From Pseudomonadota bacterium (lineage in GTDB: Bacteria > Pseudomonadota > Gammaproteobacteria > Burkholderiales > SHXO01), in assembly GCA_023430065.1 (NCBI GenBank), contig JAEZCG010000097.1:1-15349 (forward strand): 15,349 nt of DNA, given 5' to 3'. Positions 5,968 to 14,148 of this stretch are shown here, one piece after another. A program made the translations under genes and the position numbers. Position 1 is the first letter of the stretch; every line of letters begins with the position of its first letter. Under the pieces are notes generated by a model that saw nothing but the letters and a program-made list of their open reading frames with translations, did no database searches and was not told the DNA's origin.

Positions 5968-6026
5968 TGCGCGCATCGGTTCTTCGGACTGCCGAAATCA
6001 ATGACGCAGCACGCGTTGAGCGATGA
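5967..6026 (+). CDS. Mini-ORF 2 (leader peptide) overlapping the GGDEF-EAL start
   Basis: Nineteen codons (MRASVLRTAEINDAARVER) from the ATG at 5967. The sequence before it, GGGAGGTG, is a strong anti-16S complement, though only two bases separate GGAGG from the ATG. Its TGA (6024-6026) overlaps the ATG of the GGDEF-EAL gene as ATGA. That large gene has no good ribosome binding site of its own and an in-frame stop two codons upstream, so ribosomes ending this ORF could restart on it. A role as leader peptide is inferred. Confidence 0.35.
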   Translation: MRASVLRTAEINDAARVER

Positions 6027-8842
6027 ACAAATTTAAGCTACTGATCTCTGTCCTGCCTGGTGTTCGGCACCTGGTTGCGGTGACGTGGCCGTTCCTCGCC
6101 ATTGTCGTCCTGCTGGTCTGGCTCTTCAGCGAGAGCATGATCATCCTCGGATCCGCGCGCTCCTACTCAGAAGGTAACAGCAACTGGTCGAAGGAGCAGA
6201 AAGAGGCCGTTTTCCAGTTGATGCGCTACGCGGAAACACACGACGAGGCGGACTTCCACCGTTATCAGGCCGCGATCGCGGTCCCGCTCGCCTTCCAGCG
6301 CTTTCGCATGGAGCTGCAGAAACCGGATCCCGACATGGCCATCGTGCACAAGGCGTTGCGCGATGGCTTGACACATCCGGATGACGTGGAATCGGGCATC
6401 ACGTTCTTCCGGCGCTTCCACCGCATGCCCCCGATGTCGGAGGTGATCAAGGTCTGGGAGCGCGGCGATGTCCTGATCGCCCAGCTCATGGCCACCGCGG
6501 ACGAACTCCATGCAGCGATCGAAGGAGGCGATGCCACCCCCGAACAGCTGAATGCCATTCGAGACCGAATGCTGAGCATCAACGCGCAGCTGACGCCGAT
6601 GTCGCAGGAATTCACCAGAAGTCTCGGAGCCGCCTCCCGGCAAACGCAAATCGTCCTATTGGTGTCGATGTTCTCGGTGGCGGCCCTGCTACTCCCGATC
6701 GGTATCTACTTGACCCACCGCACGCTGCGACGTGGCCGCATGATCGAGGACGCGCTGAAAATGAGCGAAGAACGCTTCGACCTTGCGGTAACGGGAAGCA
6801 GTGACGGACTATGGGACTGGAAGATTCTCGCCGACGAACTCTACTACTCGCCCCGTTTCGCGGAGTTGCTGGGGTACGACAGCCAGCCGATCGCGCCGAG
6901 CATGCAGGCGATCTACGATCTGATGCGTGAAAGGGATCGGTTGGTAGTGAAGGATGCGATCGCTCACCATCTGCGTGATGACACCCATTTCGACGTGGAA
7001 GTGCCGATGTGTACGAAGGGTGGTGTCTATCGATGGTTTCGTCTGCGTGGTCAGTGCGTACGCGACGAGAGCGGAGTCGCCGTACGCATGGCCGGCGCCT
7101 TGACCGATATCACGGACAAGCAGCGCGCAGCAGCCGAATTGTTCGCTGAAAAGGAACGCGCGCAAGTTACTCTCGCTTCGATTGCCGATGGCGTGATCAC
7201 GACGGATACCGAGGGTTGGGTCGAGTACCTGAATCCGGTTGCAGAACGGCTGACCGGATGGAAGACGCAGGACGCAAGGGGTCTGCCGATCCAGGCGTTG
7301 TTCCGGCTGGTGCACGAAACCCAGCACCGCCAAGCCGTCAATCCGATCGAAATCGTGCTGAAGGAGCATCGAACGGTCGAGGCATCTGGAAACGTCCTCC
7401 TGCAACGGAACGACGGCGTCGAGATTCCCATCGTGCATTCCGCCGCACCGATTCGCGGCCGCTCGGATGCGCTGTTGGGTGTGGTGCTGATCCTGCACGA
7501 CGTCAGTCGCGAGCGTCAGTACGCGGCGCGATTGTCATATCAGGCCAGTCACGATTCGCTCACGGGTTTGATCAATCGCGGCGAATTCGAACGCCGGCTG
7601 GAACTAGCGCTGCAAAGCGCAGCGGAGATCGGACGGCACCATAGTGTCATGTATCTCGACCTCGACCAGTTCAAGGTCGTGAACGACACCTGCGGCCATG
7701 CTGCCGGAGATCAGCTGATGCGACAGGTGAGTGCGCTGCTGATGGCCGATCTGCGCGAGGGCGACACACTCGGCCGCCTGGGCGGTGACGAGTTCGGGGT
7801 GCTGCTGGAAAACTGTGCGCCCGATGCCGCCCTCAGGATCGCCGACAAACTGCGTCAGACGATCGCGGAGTTCCATTTCGCGTGGGTCCACCTGCGCTTC
7901 AGCATCAGCGTGAGCATCGGCCTGGTGAATGTCGACGATGGGTTGTTCACCTTGGCCGAAGTGCTCAGGGCGGCCGACACCGCGTGTTACATGGCTAAGG
8001 AGAAGGGCAGGAACCGAGTGCAGGTCTACCACCCGGAGGATAGCGAACTCACCGTGAGGCAGGGTGAGATGGAGTGGGTGGCGCGCATCCAGAGAGCGCT
8101 GGACGAGGATAGGTTCTTGCTCTATTCGCAGGACATCGAGCCGGTCAGCGGTGGTGCCGCTTCCGGCGTGCATTGCGAACTCCTGGTGCGTATGGTCGAC
8201 GAGAGCGGAAAGCTGGTGCCGCCGATGGCATTCATACCCGCCGCTGAACGCTACAATCTCATGCCGGCCGTGGACCGTTGGGTGATCCGCAAAGCCCTCG
8301 CCACGTTACAGCGACTGCGGTTCGAGCAACCGGACACTCCCATCGAGCTGTGTGCAATCAACTTGTCCGGCGCGTCGATTGGCGACGACAGGTTTCTCGA
8401 GTTCGTGCACGAGCAGCTCGAGGCGTTTGACGTGCCGCCTCAGTGCATCTGCTTTGAGATCACCGAGACTGCCGCGATTGCCAATCTCGCGAAAGCGCAG
8501 AGGTTCATCGAAGAGTTCCGCGCGCTCGGCTGCAGGTTCTCGCTAGACGACTTTGGCGCCGGCATGTCTTCGTTTGCCTACCTGAAGCACCTCCCGGTCG
8601 ATTTTCTCAAGATCGACGGCGGCTTCGTGAAGGACATGGCAGACGATCCCATCGATCGCGCGATGGTGGAGGCGATCAACAACGTTGGCCATGTCATGGG
8701 CAAGCGCACCATTGCCGAGTTCGTCGACAATGACCGGGTGGTGGTCGCGTTGCGCCAGATCGGAGTCGACTATGCGCAAGGCTACGGCGTAGCTAAGCCC
8801 AAACCGTTCGCTCCCATTGTCGCAGCGGTTCAGATCGCATAG
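6023..8842 (+). CDS. Membrane PAS-PAS-GGDEF-EAL protein (cyclic-di-GMP synthesis/breakdown)
   Basis: 939 residues. In order: membrane helix (about 17-42), a helical periplasmic sensor region (43-207), a second membrane helix (208-231), PAS 1 with PAC (about 245-366), PAS 2 (about 375-496), GGDEF (about 500-668) and EAL (about 682-935). The diguanylate cyclase signature GGDEF (587-591) is intact, and the inhibitory I-site RxxD (R578, D581) lies five residues before it. In the phosphodiesterase domain the signature reads ELL (E719-L721) instead of EAL, but N780, E812/E815, D842-D843, K863, E899 and Q919 keep the catalytic set. Both activities are therefore plausible; family experience says one usually dominates. 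No HAMP domain is visible. An in-frame TGA at 6017-6019 fixes the start at ATG 6023, which has little ribosome binding site of its own and overlaps the stop of a mini-ORF. Confidence 0.95.
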   Translation: MNKFKLLISVLPGVRHLVAVTWPFLAIVVLLVWLFSESMIILGSARSYSEGNSNWSKEQKEAVFQLMRYAETHDEADFHRYQAAIAVPLAFQRFRMELQKPDPDMAIVHKALRDGLTHPDDVESGITFFRRFHRMPPMSEVIKVWERGDVLIAQLMATADELHAAIEGGDATPEQLNAIRDRMLSINAQLTPMSQEFTRSLGAASRQTQIVLLVSMFSVAALLLPIGIYLTHRTLRRGRMIEDALKMSEERFDLAVTGSSDGLWDWKILADELYYSPRFAELLGYDSQPIAPSMQAIYDLMRERDRLVVKDAIAHHLRDDTHFDVEVPMCTKGGVYRWFRLRGQCVRDESGVAVRMAGALTDITDKQRAAAELFAEKERAQVTLASIADGVITTDTEGWVEYLNPVAERLTGWKTQDARGLPIQALFRLVHETQHRQAVNPIEIVLKEHRTVEASGNVLLQRNDGVEIPIVHSAAPIRGRSDALLGVVLILHDVSRERQYAARLSYQASHDSLTGLINRGEFERRLELALQSAAEIGRHHSVMYLDLDQFKVVNDTCGHAAGDQLMRQVSALLMADLREGDTLGRLGGDEFGVLLENCAPDAALRIADKLRQTIAEFHFAWVHLRFSISVSIGLVNVDDGLFTLAEVLRAADTACYMAKEKGRNRVQVYHPEDSELTVRQGEMEWVARIQRALDEDRFLLYSQDIEPVSGGAASGVHCELLVRMVDESGKLVPPMAFIPAAERYNLMPAVDRWVIRKALATLQRLRFEQPDTPIELCAINLSGASIGDDRFLEFVHEQLEAFDVPPQCICFEITETAAIANLAKAQRFIEEFRALGCRFSLDDFGAGMSSFAYLKHLPVDFLKIDGGFVKDMADDPIDRAMVEAINNVGHVMGKRTIAEFVDNDRVVVALRQIGVDYAQGYGVAKPKPFAPIVAAVQIA

Positions 8843-9137: not shown

Positions 9138-9983
9138 ATGGGGTCGATGTACGAGATATCTTCCCACCCAGCCTGGGTGAACACGATGCAGACTTTCCTA
9201 AAGCCCTATTGGGATGGGCTTCTCCAAGGAGAGTTTGCCGAGTCCGCGGCACACACGCGGCTGAGTGTCGACGAACTGCGTGGCTGGATACTCCACATGT
9301 ATCCTTTCATCCACACCTTTCCGAAGTTCCTCGCGGAAGCGCTCATCAAAGTGGAAGACGACGAGTCGCGCGCCTTCCTGATCGACAATATCCGAGTGGA
9401 GAAGACGCACGCTCAGCACTGGCTGTGGATGGCCGACGGGTTCGGCGTACCGCGTCAGATGCTGCTCGACCTCGCCACCGGAGATCAGCCCGTGTTGAGA
9501 GACGTGCAGTCGCTCACGGACTGGCTGTGGTACATCAATACCAAGGGCAGCCTCGCGGAAGCGGTTGCGGCGACCAGCTTCGCGATCGAGGGGGTCACAG
9601 GGGATTTGACGCGCAAGACGCTCAACGGCTTCTTGGCGTACGGCGATTTTCCCGGCGTGGTGATGGACCAGCGCGCCTCGCGCTGGATGCGGTCCCACGC
9701 TCGCTACGACGACGAACATCCGAAGATTGCTCTGGAAGTGATCAAGCGTTACGCCACCAACGAGCGGCTCCAGCAGAGGGCCATGCTTGCTGCGAAGCGC
9801 AGCCTCCAGCTTCTGGACCTCGCGATGACCACCTCCTATCGCGCCTATTCGAAAGCGTTGCCCTCCGCCGAAACGATCGCGGAGCAGCGGGTTGCCGATC
9901 GGCGTAGGACTGCGCAGGCGATCGCATTTCCTGAGCGCCGTTTCGGCGAGCGTCGCGGCAAGATGGTCGCATCCATACTGTAG
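9138..9983 (+). CDS. Heme-oxygenase-like diiron oxidase (TenA/PqqC-fold iron-containing redox enzyme)
   Basis: 281 residues, all-helical. The iron-ligand pattern of heme-oxygenase-like diiron oxidases (UndA, BesC and CADD relatives) is present: E88-x2-H91, then E151 (FAIEGVTGD), then H187-x3-D191-x2-H194 (HARYDDEH). Such enzymes activate O2 for oxidative C-C or C-N bond cleavage, desaturation or N-oxidation on fatty acids, amino acids or similar small molecules; the substrate here is unknown. Start: AAGGGGGCGAG lies before the ATG at 9138; a TTG at 9036 would add 34 residues of non-family-like sequence. Odd: after the catalytic core the protein ends in an arginine-rich tail, DRR (254-256) then AFPERRFGERRG (263-274), which recurs at the end of the neighbouring P450. 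The two genes lie 61 bases apart and share a strand, so they are probably co-transcribed. Confidence 0.85.
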   Translation: MGSMYEISSHPAWVNTMQTFLKPYWDGLLQGEFAESAAHTRLSVDELRGWILHMYPFIHTFPKFLAEALIKVEDDESRAFLIDNIRVEKTHAQHWLWMADGFGVPRQMLLDLATGDQPVLRDVQSLTDWLWYINTKGSLAEAVAATSFAIEGVTGDLTRKTLNGFLAYGDFPGVVMDQRASRWMRSHARYDDEHPKIALEVIKRYATNERLQQRAMLAAKRSLQLLDLAMTTSYRAYSKALPSAETIAEQRVADRRRTAQAIAFPERRFGERRGKMVASIL

Positions 9984-9996
9984 CCAGTCCCCAGGC

Positions 9997-10013
9997 GTCG
10001 CGCGAACCGCGAC
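9997..10013 (+). terminator. Small GC-rich hairpin in the gap before the P450 gene (possible attenuator)
   Basis: GTCGCG (9997-10002) pairs with CGCGAC (10008-10013) around CGAAC, followed by the T-rich ATTTCTCTT. The stem of six pairs makes it weak. Its right arm lies in a 16-base repeat whose second copy covers the P450 start. Confidence 0.3.
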
Positions 10014-10062
10014 ATTTCTCTTCTGGCGCAAAGCATCCTGCTGCATGAACCGCGACATTTCT
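10004..10062 (+). repeat. 16-base direct repeat pair around the P450 start codon
   Basis: GAACCGCGACATTTCT occurs at 10004-10019 and again at 10047-10062, 43 bases apart and identical. The second copy begins at the G of the P450 ATG and encodes its first residues; the first lies in the noncoding gap in a different frame. Confidence 0.9.
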
Positions 10063-11616
10063 GTGGACGATCCGCGCTCGCGTGTCGGGCCGTCCCGCAA
10101 GTTGGAGGAACTGCCCGGACCCAATGGAATCCCGCTGCTGGGCAATGCCTTGCAGATGAAGCCCAGGGAATGCCATCGGATCTGGGGCGAGTGGGCCGAG
10201 CAGTACGGAAAGCTGTTCGTCTTCAAACTCGGTACGACCAAGGTCTTGTGCGTGGCCGATGCGGAGCTGATCCAGCGCGTGCTGCGCGATCGGCCGGACC
10301 GCCTGCGCCGATGGCGCAAGATGGAAGAAATCGCGGTCGAGATCGAGGCCAACGGGCTGTTCACCGCTGAGGGGACCCGCTGGCGTCGCGAGCGCAAGTT
10401 CGTGATGCACGCGCTCAACGCCGCCCACATTCGCGAGTTCGTGCCGCGCCTCGAGCAGGTCATCGGACGGCTGCGTCGAAAGTGGTGGCGGGCTGCTCTG
10501 GCCGGTGCCAGCGTCGACGTGCATTCCGACCTGATGCGAATGACTGTTGACGTGACGACCGGGCTTGCGTTCGGACGCGATCTCAATACGATCGACGAGC
10601 AGGTCGATCCGATACAGGTGCACCTCGATAAGCTCTTTCCGGCGATTGCGCGGCGTCAAACCGCGCTCTTTCCTTATTGGCGCTACATCCGGCTACCCGC
10701 CGATCGTGAACTGGATGCTGCGATTGCCGAGGTAAGTCGCGTACTTCATGAACTGATCGGCGATGCGCGCGCGCGCCTCTCGTCTGCCCCGGGCGCGCGG
10801 CCCACCAACCTTGTCGAGGCGCTCGTTGCCGCCCAGCTTCAGGACGAGGGCTCCTTCACAGATGGCGAGATTGCCAACAATCTCATGACTGTCCTCCTGG
10901 CCGGGGAGGACACGACGGCCAACAGCCTGTCCTACTTGGTCCATTTCCTCATGGAGCATCCGCTCGTGCAGGCGCGCGTGCAGGAGGAGGTGGACAGCGT
11001 CATGGGGGTCGCGGAGCGCTCCTGGCAGGATCCGTCCCTGGCGGATCGACTTCGCTACATCGAGGCCGTGGCGAATGAAACCATGCGTTGCAAGCCGGTC
11101 GGTGCCCACCTTTTTCTGGAGCCCAATGAAGACATCCACGTGGGTGACGTATTCGTGCCGCGTGGAACGCCGATACTCGTCATGAACGGCCACGTTGGAT
11201 CTTATGAACAGCACTTCAGCAAGGCGGCCGAGTTCTTGCCCGAACGTTGGCTCGAAGCGGCGGAGTCACAAAGCTGCCCGGTGCACGACATGAAGGCGTT
11301 CATGCCCTTCGGGTCCGGTCCCCGGTTCTGTCCGGGTCGTCAACTTGCCATGCTGCAGATCAAGATGTTCGTGGCCATGCTCTGCCGCGACTTCCAAGTG
11401 GTGCATCCGGCCGACGCCGAGCCACTGGAGGACATCTACAACTTTACCGTCGGCCCGGTCAACGTTCGTGCGCTACTCGTTCCGCGCCGCTCGATACGGC
11501 CGGGTATCGACATCGAGCTCCGTGCAGGCGATCGACGCAAGGTGTCCCTCCCCTTGGCCTTTCCAGAGCGACGTCGGGGAGAGCGCCGGGGGCAAGCGGC
11601 AACAGCCGTCGAGTGA
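10045..11616 (+). CDS. Cytochrome P450 monooxygenase
   Basis: 523 residues. All core P450 motifs are present: the proline-rich LPGPNGIPLLGN (23-34), the I-helix oxygen-activation motif AGEDTT (286-291), ExxR (E345-R348), FLPERW (397-402) and the heme loop FGSGPRFCPG (422-431) with ligand C429. There is no membrane anchor, so it is soluble; it needs outside electron donors, and none is encoded nearby. The substrate cannot be read from sequence. The P450 core ends near residue 485; the rest is an extra tail with DRR (496-498) and AFPERRRGERRG (505-516), matching the diiron oxidase tail. The frame stays open upstream to about 9892 but overlaps the oxidase gene, and its translation is not P450-like, so the ATG at 10045 is chosen. 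No Shine-Dalgarno sequence is visible there. Confidence 0.95.
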   Translation: MNRDISVDDPRSRVGPSRKLEELPGPNGIPLLGNALQMKPRECHRIWGEWAEQYGKLFVFKLGTTKVLCVADAELIQRVLRDRPDRLRRWRKMEEIAVEIEANGLFTAEGTRWRRERKFVMHALNAAHIREFVPRLEQVIGRLRRKWWRAALAGASVDVHSDLMRMTVDVTTGLAFGRDLNTIDEQVDPIQVHLDKLFPAIARRQTALFPYWRYIRLPADRELDAAIAEVSRVLHELIGDARARLSSAPGARPTNLVEALVAAQLQDEGSFTDGEIANNLMTVLLAGEDTTANSLSYLVHFLMEHPLVQARVQEEVDSVMGVAERSWQDPSLADRLRYIEAVANETMRCKPVGAHLFLEPNEDIHVGDVFVPRGTPILVMNGHVGSYEQHFSKAAEFLPERWLEAAESQSCPVHDMKAFMPFGSGPRFCPGRQLAMLQIKMFVAMLCRDFQVVHPADAEPLEDIYNFTVGPVNVRALLVPRRSIRPGIDIELRAGDRRKVSLPLAFPERRRGERRGQAATAVE

Positions 11617-11625
11617 ACTGGCTAG

Positions 11626-11661
11626 AACGAAAACGCCCCGCTCATGCGGGGCGTTTTCGTT
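11626..11661. terminator. Strong bidirectional intrinsic terminator
   Basis: AACGAAAACGCCCCGC (11626-11641) pairs without mismatch to GCGGGGCGTTTTCGTT (11646-11661) around the loop TCAT. The A-rich left and T-rich right sides let it work on both strands. It separates the P450 gene from the convergent pyrophosphatase gene, 9 bases after the P450 stop and 21 bases beyond the hppA stop. Confidence 0.95.
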
Positions 11662-11682: not shown

Positions 11683-14148
11683 CTACTGGACCAGGCTCAC
11701 CTCGACCCGCCGTGCTTCGGCATCGGATCCACTGCCGGTGACCGTCTCCGGTTTCTCCATGTCGATGCGATCTTCCGCAACGCCCGCACCGACGAGCGCA
11801 TCGCGCACCGCAAAGGCCCGAGCCTTGGCCAGTTCCTCGTTCTGGACGGGGTCGCCGCTCGCGTCGGTGAATCCCGAGATCTGCAGCCTCGCGGCACTGT
11901 CGGTCCGCACAGCTTCCACCATCCCGGCAAGCTGGGCGGCGGCATCCGACGGTAGGCTGCTCTGCCCGATCTCGAACAGGATGGCCACGGGCGGAATGGA
12001 GGCAACCGGTGCGTGCGCCACGGCAGGCGCCTCGGCAATCGCCGCCTCGGACGTCGCCTGCGGCGCGGCGGTGGCGTACACCCCGGCCAGCACCGGAACG
12101 ATCAGCAGTGCGACGAGGTTGATGATCTTGATCAGGGGGTTGACCGCGGGCCCCGCCGTGTCCTTGTAGGGATCGCCGACGGTATAGCCGGTCACCGCCG
12201 CCTTGTGGGCGTCGGAACCCTTGCCTCCGTGGTGACCTTCCTCGATGTACTTCTTCGCGTTGTCCCATGCACCGCCACCGGTCGTCATGGAGATGGCGAC
12301 GAACAGACCGGTGACGATCGTTCCCATCAGCAGGCCGCCGAGCGCTGCGGGTCCGAGGATCAGGCCGACCAGGATCGGCACGATCACCGGCAGCAGTGAC
12401 GGAATCATCATTTCCTTGATCGCCGCGGTGGTCAGCATGTCGACGGCGCGGCCATACTCGGGCTTGGCCTTGCCTTCCATGATGCCCTTGATGTCGCGGA
12501 ACTGCCGGCGCACTTCCTCCACGACCGCGCCGGCTGCACGACCGACGGCTTCCATCGCCATGGCGCCGAACAGGAAGGGAATCAGTCCGCCGATGAACAG
12601 GCCGATGATCACGTTCGGGTCGGACAGGTCGAAGCTGGCCGCGATGCCGGCGCCCTTGAGAGCGGCGGTGTAATCCGCGAACAGCACCAGCGCAGCCAGG
12701 CCGGCCGATCCGATGGCGTAACCCTTGGTCACCGCCTTGGTGGTGTTGCCTACGGCATCGAGGGGGTCGGTGACGTTGCGTACCGACTTCGGCATTTCCG
12801 CCATCTCCGCGATGCCGCCGGCGTTGTCGGTGATCGGTCCGTAGGCATCCAGCGCCACGATGATGCCGGCCATGGACAGCATGGCCGTGGCGGCGATGGC
12901 GATGCCGTACAGGCCGGTCACGCCGCCGCCTGTCACCCAGTACGACGCGAGAATCGCCACGCACACGGCCAGTACGGGCAGCGCACACGCCTTCATCGAC
13001 ACTGCGATCCCGGCAATGATGTTGGTCGCATGACCGGTGGTCGATGCCTGCGCCACGTACTTCACCGGCTTGAAGTCGGTGCCGGTGTAGTACTCGGTGA
13101 TCCACATCAGGGCGCCGGTGAGGAGGATGCCGATTGCCGAGGCCATCCACAGCTTCATCGGGGTCACCTCGCCGCCCGTCACGTCGGCCACGCCGCCCAT
13201 CAGCCAGGTGGTGATCGGGTAGAACGCGATCAGGGACAGCACGCCCGCCACGATGACACCGCGGTAGAGTGCATTCATGATCTTGCCGCCTTCCCTCGCC
13301 TTGACGAAGTAGCAGCCGATGATCGAGGCGATGATGGAGGCGCCGCCGAGGGCAAGCGGGTAGAGGATTGCCATGTCGCCGAAGTTCGCGAAGGCCAGCG
13401 CACCGACCAGCATGGTCGCAACCACCGTCACGGCGTAGGTCTCGAACAGGTCGGCCGCCATGCCGGCGCAGTCGCCGACGTTGTCGCCCACGTTATCGGC
13501 GATCACCGCCGGATTGCGGGGATCGTCCTCGGGGATGCCGGCCTCGACCTTGCCGACCAGATCTGCGCCCACGTCGGCGCCTTTGGTGAAGATGCCGCCG
13601 CCCAGACGGGCGAAGATGGAAATCAAGGAAGAGCCGAAGGCCAGCCCGATCATCGGGTGCAGGAGGTGGCGCATGTCGCTGGTGTCGCCGCTGAAGTTCA
13701 CCAACAAGGCGTAGAAGCCCGCGACGCCCAGCAGACCAAGTCCCACGACCAGCATTCCCGTGATGGCACCGCCGCGGAATGCGACGTCCAAGGCGGCGCT
13801 CAGGCCCTGCGTGGCAGCCTGCGCAGTGCGCACGTTGGAACGCACCGAGATGTTCATTCCGATGTAACCGGCTGCACCCGAGAGGATCGCCCCGATCAGG
13901 AATCCGATGGCCGTCGGCCAGCCGAGCCCGGGCACCAGGCCGATGATGATGAACAGCACCACGCCGACCAGGCCGATCGTCCGGTACTGCCTGTTCAGGT
14001 AGGCCTGTGCGCCCTGCTGGATGGCCGCGGCGATTTCCTGCATGCGCGGGTTGCCGGCGGGCTTGCCCAGGACCCAGCCAATCGATATCACGCCGTAGAC
14101 GACTGCCAGGATCGCGCAGGCGAGCGCGAAGATCAGTGCGGCTGACAT
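11683..14148 (-). CDS. hppA: K+-independent H+-translocating membrane pyrophosphatase fused to an OmpA-like domain
   Basis: 821 residues, against roughly 660-720 for ordinary HppA. The core (1 to about 690) has the many membrane helices of M-PPases and their catalytic loops: [12 protein letters not shown] (189-200), [19 protein letters not shown] (218-236), [10 protein letters not shown] (441-450), [12 protein letters not shown] (627-638) and [14 protein letters not shown] (658-671). It hydrolyses pyrophosphate and pumps H+ out of the cytoplasm. [10 protein letters not shown] (467-476) has Lys471 and Thr474, the pair that marks K+-independent H+-pumps. After an Ala/Pro-rich linker (692-720) comes an extra domain, 721-821, resembling OmpA C-terminal domains ([41 protein letters not shown]), here with F760 where GHTD has His and A812 where NRRVE has Asn. 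The start has AGGGGG five bases upstream. It is convergent with the P450 gene. Confidence 0.95.

What the first reader, a model, noticed from the sequence alone, without database searches (positions are those of the whole stretch)
9897..11592. Two adjacent, structurally unrelated oxidases share the same C-terminal arginine-rich tail
The diiron oxidase (tail at 9897-9959) and the P450 (tail at 11530-11592) both end in DRR-x6-AFPERRxGERRG with identical spacing and no gaps; 14 of the 22 positions starting at DRR are identical. The catalytic folds are unrelated, so the tail is not inherited with them. Within AFPERRxGERRG, 7 of the 11 shared residues use different synonymous codons, so this is not a recent DNA copy and looks like selection on the peptide. 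It lies outside both catalytic cores. Possible roles: docking of the two enzymes to each other or to a common scaffold or carrier, membrane/nucleoid localisation, or a tag read by a processing enzyme. I do not know of a described tag of this form on oxidases.
Basis: partly seen in the sequence, partly recalled or inferred. Interest (0 to 1): 0.82.

Follow-up and report, generated by a model that had tools for sequence, protein, structure and literature searches.

The report
Shared C-terminal tag on unrelated oxidases
Neighbouring bacterial enzymes with unrelated folds end in the same short, floppy, arginine-rich tail that selection has kept almost unchanged, which looks like a plug that brings them to one common partner.

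Summary
All 120 listed relatives of the diiron oxidase carry the tail, with RR…FPxRRx3RR invariant after a fast-changing linker. A P450 clade carries it in the same register: 88 of 120 listed P450s; 29 lack it and form an outside group, 3 cannot be judged. Two more families beside or near the diiron gene carry it: a fatty-acid desaturase and a PF10118 protein. FP[ED]RR mostly ends 13 residues before the C-terminus. The FPERRFGERRG part is strongly constrained (pN/pS 0.21; core 0.30, linker 0.90), yet AlphaFold2 confidence there is about 50 or less. Genome-wide it is rare: 15 of 300 order genomes, 1 of 398 phylum genomes. The diiron gene sits by a membrane GGDEF-EAL gene in 30 of 33 loci; the other three are cut by the contig end. 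Best reading: a C-terminal docking motif for one shared partner, still unidentified. Against strict coupling: tail-less diiron and P450 relatives, a tail-less dioxygenase gene nearby in three loci, and small non-oxidases with a similar motif. Eight paper searches found no description.

The parts
9138..9983 (+). [quoted passage not shown]
   Evidence: Pfam PF14518 3e-11 and PF03070 2e-8; UndA and 3oql closest in the PDB by profile and fold; start
9888..9980 (+). C-terminal tail of the HDO, from R251 (P0001 numbering) to the last residue
   Evidence: 120 of 120 listed relatives carry it; pLDDT below 50 for residues 242-281
10045..11616 (+). Cytochrome P450, 523 aa, 61 bases after the HDO stop
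   Evidence: PF00067 2e-80; FGSGPRFCPG, ETMR and AGEDTT motifs
11521..11613 (+). C-terminal tail of the P450, same register
   Evidence: blocks 491-523 have mean pLDDT 44-50
6023..8842 (+). Neighbouring protein with two predicted membrane segments, PAS domains, GGDEF and EAL
   Evidence: Pfam; hydropathy; relative next to the HDO in 30 of 33 loci
11639..11653 (+). Terminator-like hairpin after the P450
   Evidence: consensus scan only, 4 sites found against 2.0 expected in the region

Best explanation
The tail is a C-terminal short linear docking motif on a flexible linker. Shown: it is predicted disordered, conserved residue by residue, mostly fixed in distance from the C-terminus, and present on four unrelated enzyme families coded with or near an UndA-like diiron oxidase. 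Inferred: one common partner binds the motif and so brings soluble enzymes (HDO, P450, PF10118 protein) and a membrane desaturase to one place, perhaps to pass on a fatty-acid-like substrate or to share an electron donor. Partner candidates, in my order: the neighbouring membrane GGDEF-EAL sensor, a redox protein coded elsewhere, a scaffold coded elsewhere.
For: Invariant RR..FPxRR..RR in 120 of 120 HDOs after a variable linker. Same register in a P450 clade, in 3 desaturases and, with longer spacing in its first half, in 2 PF10118 proteins. Distance from FP[ED]RR to the C-terminus is 13 in 98 of 120 HDOs and 57 of 86 P450s, 3 of 3 desaturases and 2 of 2 PF10118 proteins. pN/pS 0.21 against 0.90 in the linker. 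Low pLDDT. Rare genome-wide. The desaturase core at E 1e-40 occurs in 2 of 300 order genomes, both with a tailed HDO. HDO and P450 lists share 11 contig lengths of 4 kb or more against 0.14 expected. Three P450s carry the tail twice.
Against: No receptor was found. Seven HDOs without the tail still sit by a GGDEF-EAL gene where flank exists. Two P450s that seem to share a contig with a tailed HDO (P0210, P0215) lack the tail. A PhyH dioxygenase gene close to the HDO in L010, L014 and L018 has no such tail. In G580 the tailed P450 lies on another contig with no HDO or GGDEF-EAL relative seen in the 20 kb read. Short proteins of no Pfam family carry similar tails, as do three unrelated short proteins in other genomes. 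Tails on the same contig are not more alike than across contigs (530 of 5000 permutations as high).
Confidence: 0.6

Rival explanations
1. The tail binds a polyanion directly: the arginines grip phospholipid or RNA and keep the enzymes near the membrane or another site, with no protein receptor.
For: 8 to 11 arginines and net charge +3 to +6 in the last 40-44 residues of the three tails computed; likely lipid substrates (family knowledge).
Against: Exact spacing, invariant F-P and kept acidic residues exceed what charge alone needs. The desaturase already has membrane-like segments, so an anchor would be redundant there.
Confidence: 0.15
2. The tail is a C-terminal recognition tag for a protease or modifying enzyme (degron or processing signal), which would explain the fixed distance from the end.
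For: 13 residues from FP[ED]RR to the end in most members of four families.
Against: The last eight residues themselves vary between families; distances of 9 to 25 also occur in P450s; no processing gene recurs among 20 scanned neighbours.
Confidence: 0.1
3. The tail binds c-di-GMP or another nucleotide made by the neighbouring GGDEF-EAL protein, so the messenger gates the oxidases.
For: GGDEF-EAL neighbour in 30 of 33 loci with GGDEF and RxxD motifs in the window protein. RxxxR occurs in the tail; that it resembles part of the PilZ motif is my recollection.
Against: RxxxR alone is very common. No other nucleotide-binding feature is present. Tail-less HDOs keep the same neighbour.
Confidence: 0.07
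4. The tail loads the enzymes into an encapsulin or a bacterial microcompartment.
For: Such cargo carries terminal peptides on unrelated enzymes (general knowledge).
Against: Encapsulin family PF04454 in 3 of 14 HDO genomes and BMC family PF00936 in 1 of 14. Other shell families were not tested.
Confidence: 0.02
5. The tail is a functionless leftover of an old DNA copy between neighbouring genes.
For: Identical register on unrelated folds suggests the segment was once copied.
Against: pN/pS 0.21 in FPERRFGERRG; only 40 of 66 bases identical in the window, so any copy is old and has been kept.
Confidence: 0.02

Closest known systems
UndA (1-undecene-forming fatty acid decarboxylase, HDO superfamily)
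   Same: Fold and profile match; six conserved positions that fit the 3H/3C ligand set
   Different: The profile match stops at position 228 of 282, before the tail; substrate here untested
Encapsulin and microcompartment targeting peptides (recalled)
   Same: Short terminal peptides shared by unrelated enzymes through a flexible linker
   Different: Shell proteins are absent from most HDO genomes; sequence unlike any I recall
RpfF-RpfR type pairs: fatty-acid signal maker beside a PAS-GGDEF-EAL sensor (recalled)
   Same: Probable lipid-modifying enzyme gene beside a PAS-GGDEF-EAL gene
   Different: Enzyme is an HDO; the GGDEF-EAL protein has membrane segments; no signal is known here; the resemblance is by recall only
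HDO protein DtpC of Acinetobacter (PMC13232832, passages read)
   Same: HDO superfamily by predicted structure
   Different: Linked there to desiccation stress; the passages seen mention no such tail

Membership tests
HDO superfamily | Heme-oxygenase-like alpha-helical fold | tested here: met
   Foldseek to 3oql, UndA and CADD, TM-score by query 0.68-0.73
HDO superfamily | 3 histidine / 3 carboxylate ligand set (PMC13108848, passages) | tested here: met
   E88, H91, E151, H187, D191, H194 invariant in 61 rows and aligned to UndA; which UndA residues are ligands is recalled
HDO superfamily | Binds two metals and activates oxygen | not testable with these tools
   needs protein
Cytochrome P450 | FxxGxRxCxG heme loop and ExxR | tested here: met
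   residues 422-431 and 345-348; PF00067
Fatty acid desaturase (third carrier) | PF00487 match | tested here: met
   E 6e-16 and 3e-16 for P0241 and P0242; P0243 not scanned
Encapsulin cargo | Encapsulin shell gene in the genome | tested here: not met
   PF04454 in 3 of 14 HDO genomes
Microcompartment cargo | BMC shell gene in the genome | tested here: not met
   PF00936 in 1 of 14 HDO genomes
Short linear docking motif | Disordered segment | tested here: met
Short linear docking motif | Conserved islands in a fast-changing linker | tested here: met
Short linear docking motif | A receptor that binds it | not testable with these tools
   needs a binding experiment; complex prediction was not on offer

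The most novel reading that the evidence does not exclude
The tail is a modular address code by which different oxygen-using enzymes (HDO, P450, desaturase, PF10118 protein) plug into one membrane c-di-GMP sensor, making an exchangeable lipid-oxidising complex whose product the PAS domains read. GGDEF-EAL partners of normally tailed HDOs have PAS domains in 6 of 6 examined, those of degenerate-tail HDOs have GAF in 2 of 2, and those of tail-less HDOs have neither in 4 of 4, though this may only follow the clades.
Probability: 0.18. Interest if true: 0.92.

Novelty: new variant of a known kind. Interest (0 to 1): 0.75.

Why it matters
Terminal tags that gather unrelated enzymes are known to me mainly for shells and organelles. 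A tag shared by four enzyme families in genomes that mostly lack such shells would be another way for bacteria to assemble oxidation pathways, a possible handle for building such assemblies, and a lead to what UndA-like oxidases with c-di-GMP neighbours make.

Tried and rejected
Rejected: chance or low complexity; a recent DNA copy; encapsulin or microcompartment cargo. I looked for a shared redox or scaffold gene beside the HDO by scanning 20 called neighbours from tailed or degenerate-tail loci with Pfam: no ferredoxin, reductase partner or scaffold family was named; 6 of 20 matched no family; GntR regulators (3) and PhyH dioxygenases (2) recur within one group of loci.

Led nowhere: a database search with the desaturase tail alone gave 3 desaturases of 79 candidates. 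PF10118 paralogues for a within-genome control do not exist in the 8 genomes searched: only the two tailed copies were found. Paper searches for the tail or the HDO/GGDEF pair gave no description; of the 45 papers with the letters FPERR only 20 titles and abstract starts were listed. PMC8304167 was read in passages: its redox enzyme and its GGDEF/EAL gene cmpA have distant locus tags and are not this pair. Co-variation of tails on the same contig was not significant.

Full report
Observation. 14 of 22 residues match, 9 of the 14 shared residues use different codons, and 40 of 66 bases match. [quoted passage not shown]). Six positions that fit the 3H/3C ligand set are invariant in 61 aligned relatives. 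The downstream enzyme is a cytochrome P450 with its signature motifs. The likely HDO start is the ATG at 9138, giving 281 residues.

Conservation. The 120 listed HDO relatives (best of 1072 found) all carry the tail. In P0001 numbering R255, R256, F264, P265, R267, R268, R272 and R273 are identical in 120 of 120, while linker positions 241-248 average about 3.3 bits of entropy. Of the 120 listed P450 relatives (best of 1724 found), 86 match a regex for the tail. Two more (P0180, P0201) carry a variant by eye. Three (P0126, P0207, P0212) are cut or run out of frame, and 29 end before it. In a tree of 118 of them (the two shortest, both tailed, were dropped) the 29 form an outside group with support 100, so one gain is enough. 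Both families share R(-13), RR(-9,-8), F(0), RR(3,4), RR(8,9). Three P450s (P0177, P0202, P0204) carry the tail twice.

Selection and structure. Over 22 HDO genes, two of them with degenerate tails, pN/pS is 0.30 in the core, 0.90 in the linker, 0.46 in the whole tail and 0.21 in FPERRFGERRG (uncorrected proportions). AlphaFold2 gives HDO residues 242-281 pLDDT below 50 and P450 residues 491-523 block means of 44-50. Constraint without predicted structure is the usual mark of a short linear motif (general knowledge).

More carriers. A genome-contig scan with the HDO gave 32 loci. Of the 33 HDOs (32 and the window), 22 have a normal tail, 3 a degenerate one (L019, L024, L027), 7 none (L020-L023, L025, L026, L029), and one (L032) is cut. 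The tail also ends fatty acid desaturases in L003, L004 and L011 and PF10118 proteins directly after the HDO in L017 and L018; Pfam names are (P0243 was not scanned). In the PF10118 proteins the first half of the motif is spaced more widely. Pfam calls PF10118 a predicted metal-dependent hydrolase; that it is a ferritin-like diiron protein is my recollection. The desaturase core reaches E 1e-40 in 2 of 300 order genomes, both with a tailed HDO. The desaturases have membrane-like segments, so a plain membrane anchor would be redundant there.

Rarity. A 24-column tail profile (A2) hits 12 of 12 and 13 of 13 HDO genomes at E 0.1. In two of these (G583, G585, tail-less HDOs) the only hits are weak and in frames of 28 and 39 residues, probably spurious. 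At E 0.001 it hits 9 of 12 genomes of one family, 15 of 300 of the order, 4 of 274 of the class and 1 of 398 of the phylum. Each count includes the centre genome, and the large surveys scored only part of the first-look candidates. Of the 19 hits, 14 are HDO, 2 desaturase, 1 PF10118, 1 a short protein and 1 unclear (L064). The three hits outside G007 are C-termini of unrelated short proteins (L053-L055), so a looser form of the motif exists elsewhere.

Short proteins. Proteins in frames of 117-184 residues with a similar tail occur in G006, G007 and G580; the two scanned match no Pfam family. Their core is found in 2 of 250 order genomes, both HDO genomes. They lie away from the HDO locus, some near genes that I read by eye as molybdopterin and formate dehydrogenase genes.

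Neighbourhood. With a home-made gene caller, a relative of the window's GGDEF-EAL protein lies next to the HDO in 30 of 33 loci, with at most one short called frame between; in the other three (L021, L029, L031) the contig starts at or within 135 bases of the HDO. Tail-less HDOs have the same kind of neighbour. Partners of normally tailed HDOs had PAS domains in 6 of 6 examined, of degenerate-tail HDOs GAF in 2 of 2, of tail-less HDOs neither in 4 of 4; this may just follow clades. Tailed and tail-less partners alike have two membrane-like segments. A PhyH dioxygenase gene close to the HDO in L010, L014 and L018 has no such tail (Pfam for L018 and L010), so not every oxygenase nearby is tagged.

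P450 linkage. Twelve contig lengths are shared between the HDO and P450 lists, 11 of them 4 kb or longer against 0.14 expected, so many pairs share a contig. Two of these P450s (P0210, P0215) lack the tail, which counts against strict coupling. In G580 the tailed P450 lies on another contig, with no relative of the HDO or GGDEF-EAL protein found in the 20 kb read. In the order survey 11 of 300 genomes have a P450 relative. In 10 of them (38-49% identity) the copies read, 13 of 15, lack the tail, including those of G012 and G286, which have a tailed HDO elsewhere; the eleventh, G411, is cut by the contig end.

Mechanism. I hold that the tail is a docking motif for one common partner (0.6). Shown: register, constraint, predicted disorder, rarity and location. 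Inferred: the partner and the benefit. The enzyme kinds use oxygen and probably act on lipids (family knowledge; not tested, and PF10118 least certain), so shared electron supply or channelling of a fatty-acid intermediate are the likeliest gains. No partner was identified.

Novelty. No paper found describes the tail; the library holds only open-licence papers. In the HDO review PMC13108848 (passages read) the word tail does not occur and the one C-terminal mention is the cupin domain of SznF. PMC13232832 (passages read) reports an HDO that protects against desiccation stress, a reminder that fatty-acid chemistry is not certain here.

Noticed in passing
6023-8842 and 9138-9983; L001-L032: An UndA-like diiron oxidase gene beside a membrane GGDEF-EAL gene in 30 of 33 loci, whether or not the oxidase has the tail: a conserved pair in its own right.
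   Followed up: partly
P0177, P0202, P0204: P450s that carry the tail twice in tandem, as a repeatable module.
   Followed up: no
L048, L052, L075, L077, L078, L098, L100: Short proteins with a KGQAISFA/KAQAISF-type core and a similar tail; core found in 2 of 250 order genomes, both with the HDO.
   Followed up: partly
L053, L054, L055: Unrelated short proteins in other genomes of the class end in a looser RR..F[PA]DRR..RR motif.
   Followed up: no
11683-14148, - strand: Proton-pumping pyrophosphatase (PF03030) with a C-terminal OmpA domain (PF00691) on one chain.
   Followed up: no
10004-10019 and 10047-10062: Direct repeat GAACCGCGACATTTCT just before and over the P450 start.
   Followed up: no
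6023-8842: The EAL signature reads ELLVR, while GGDEF, the RxxD site and DDFG are present.
   Followed up: no
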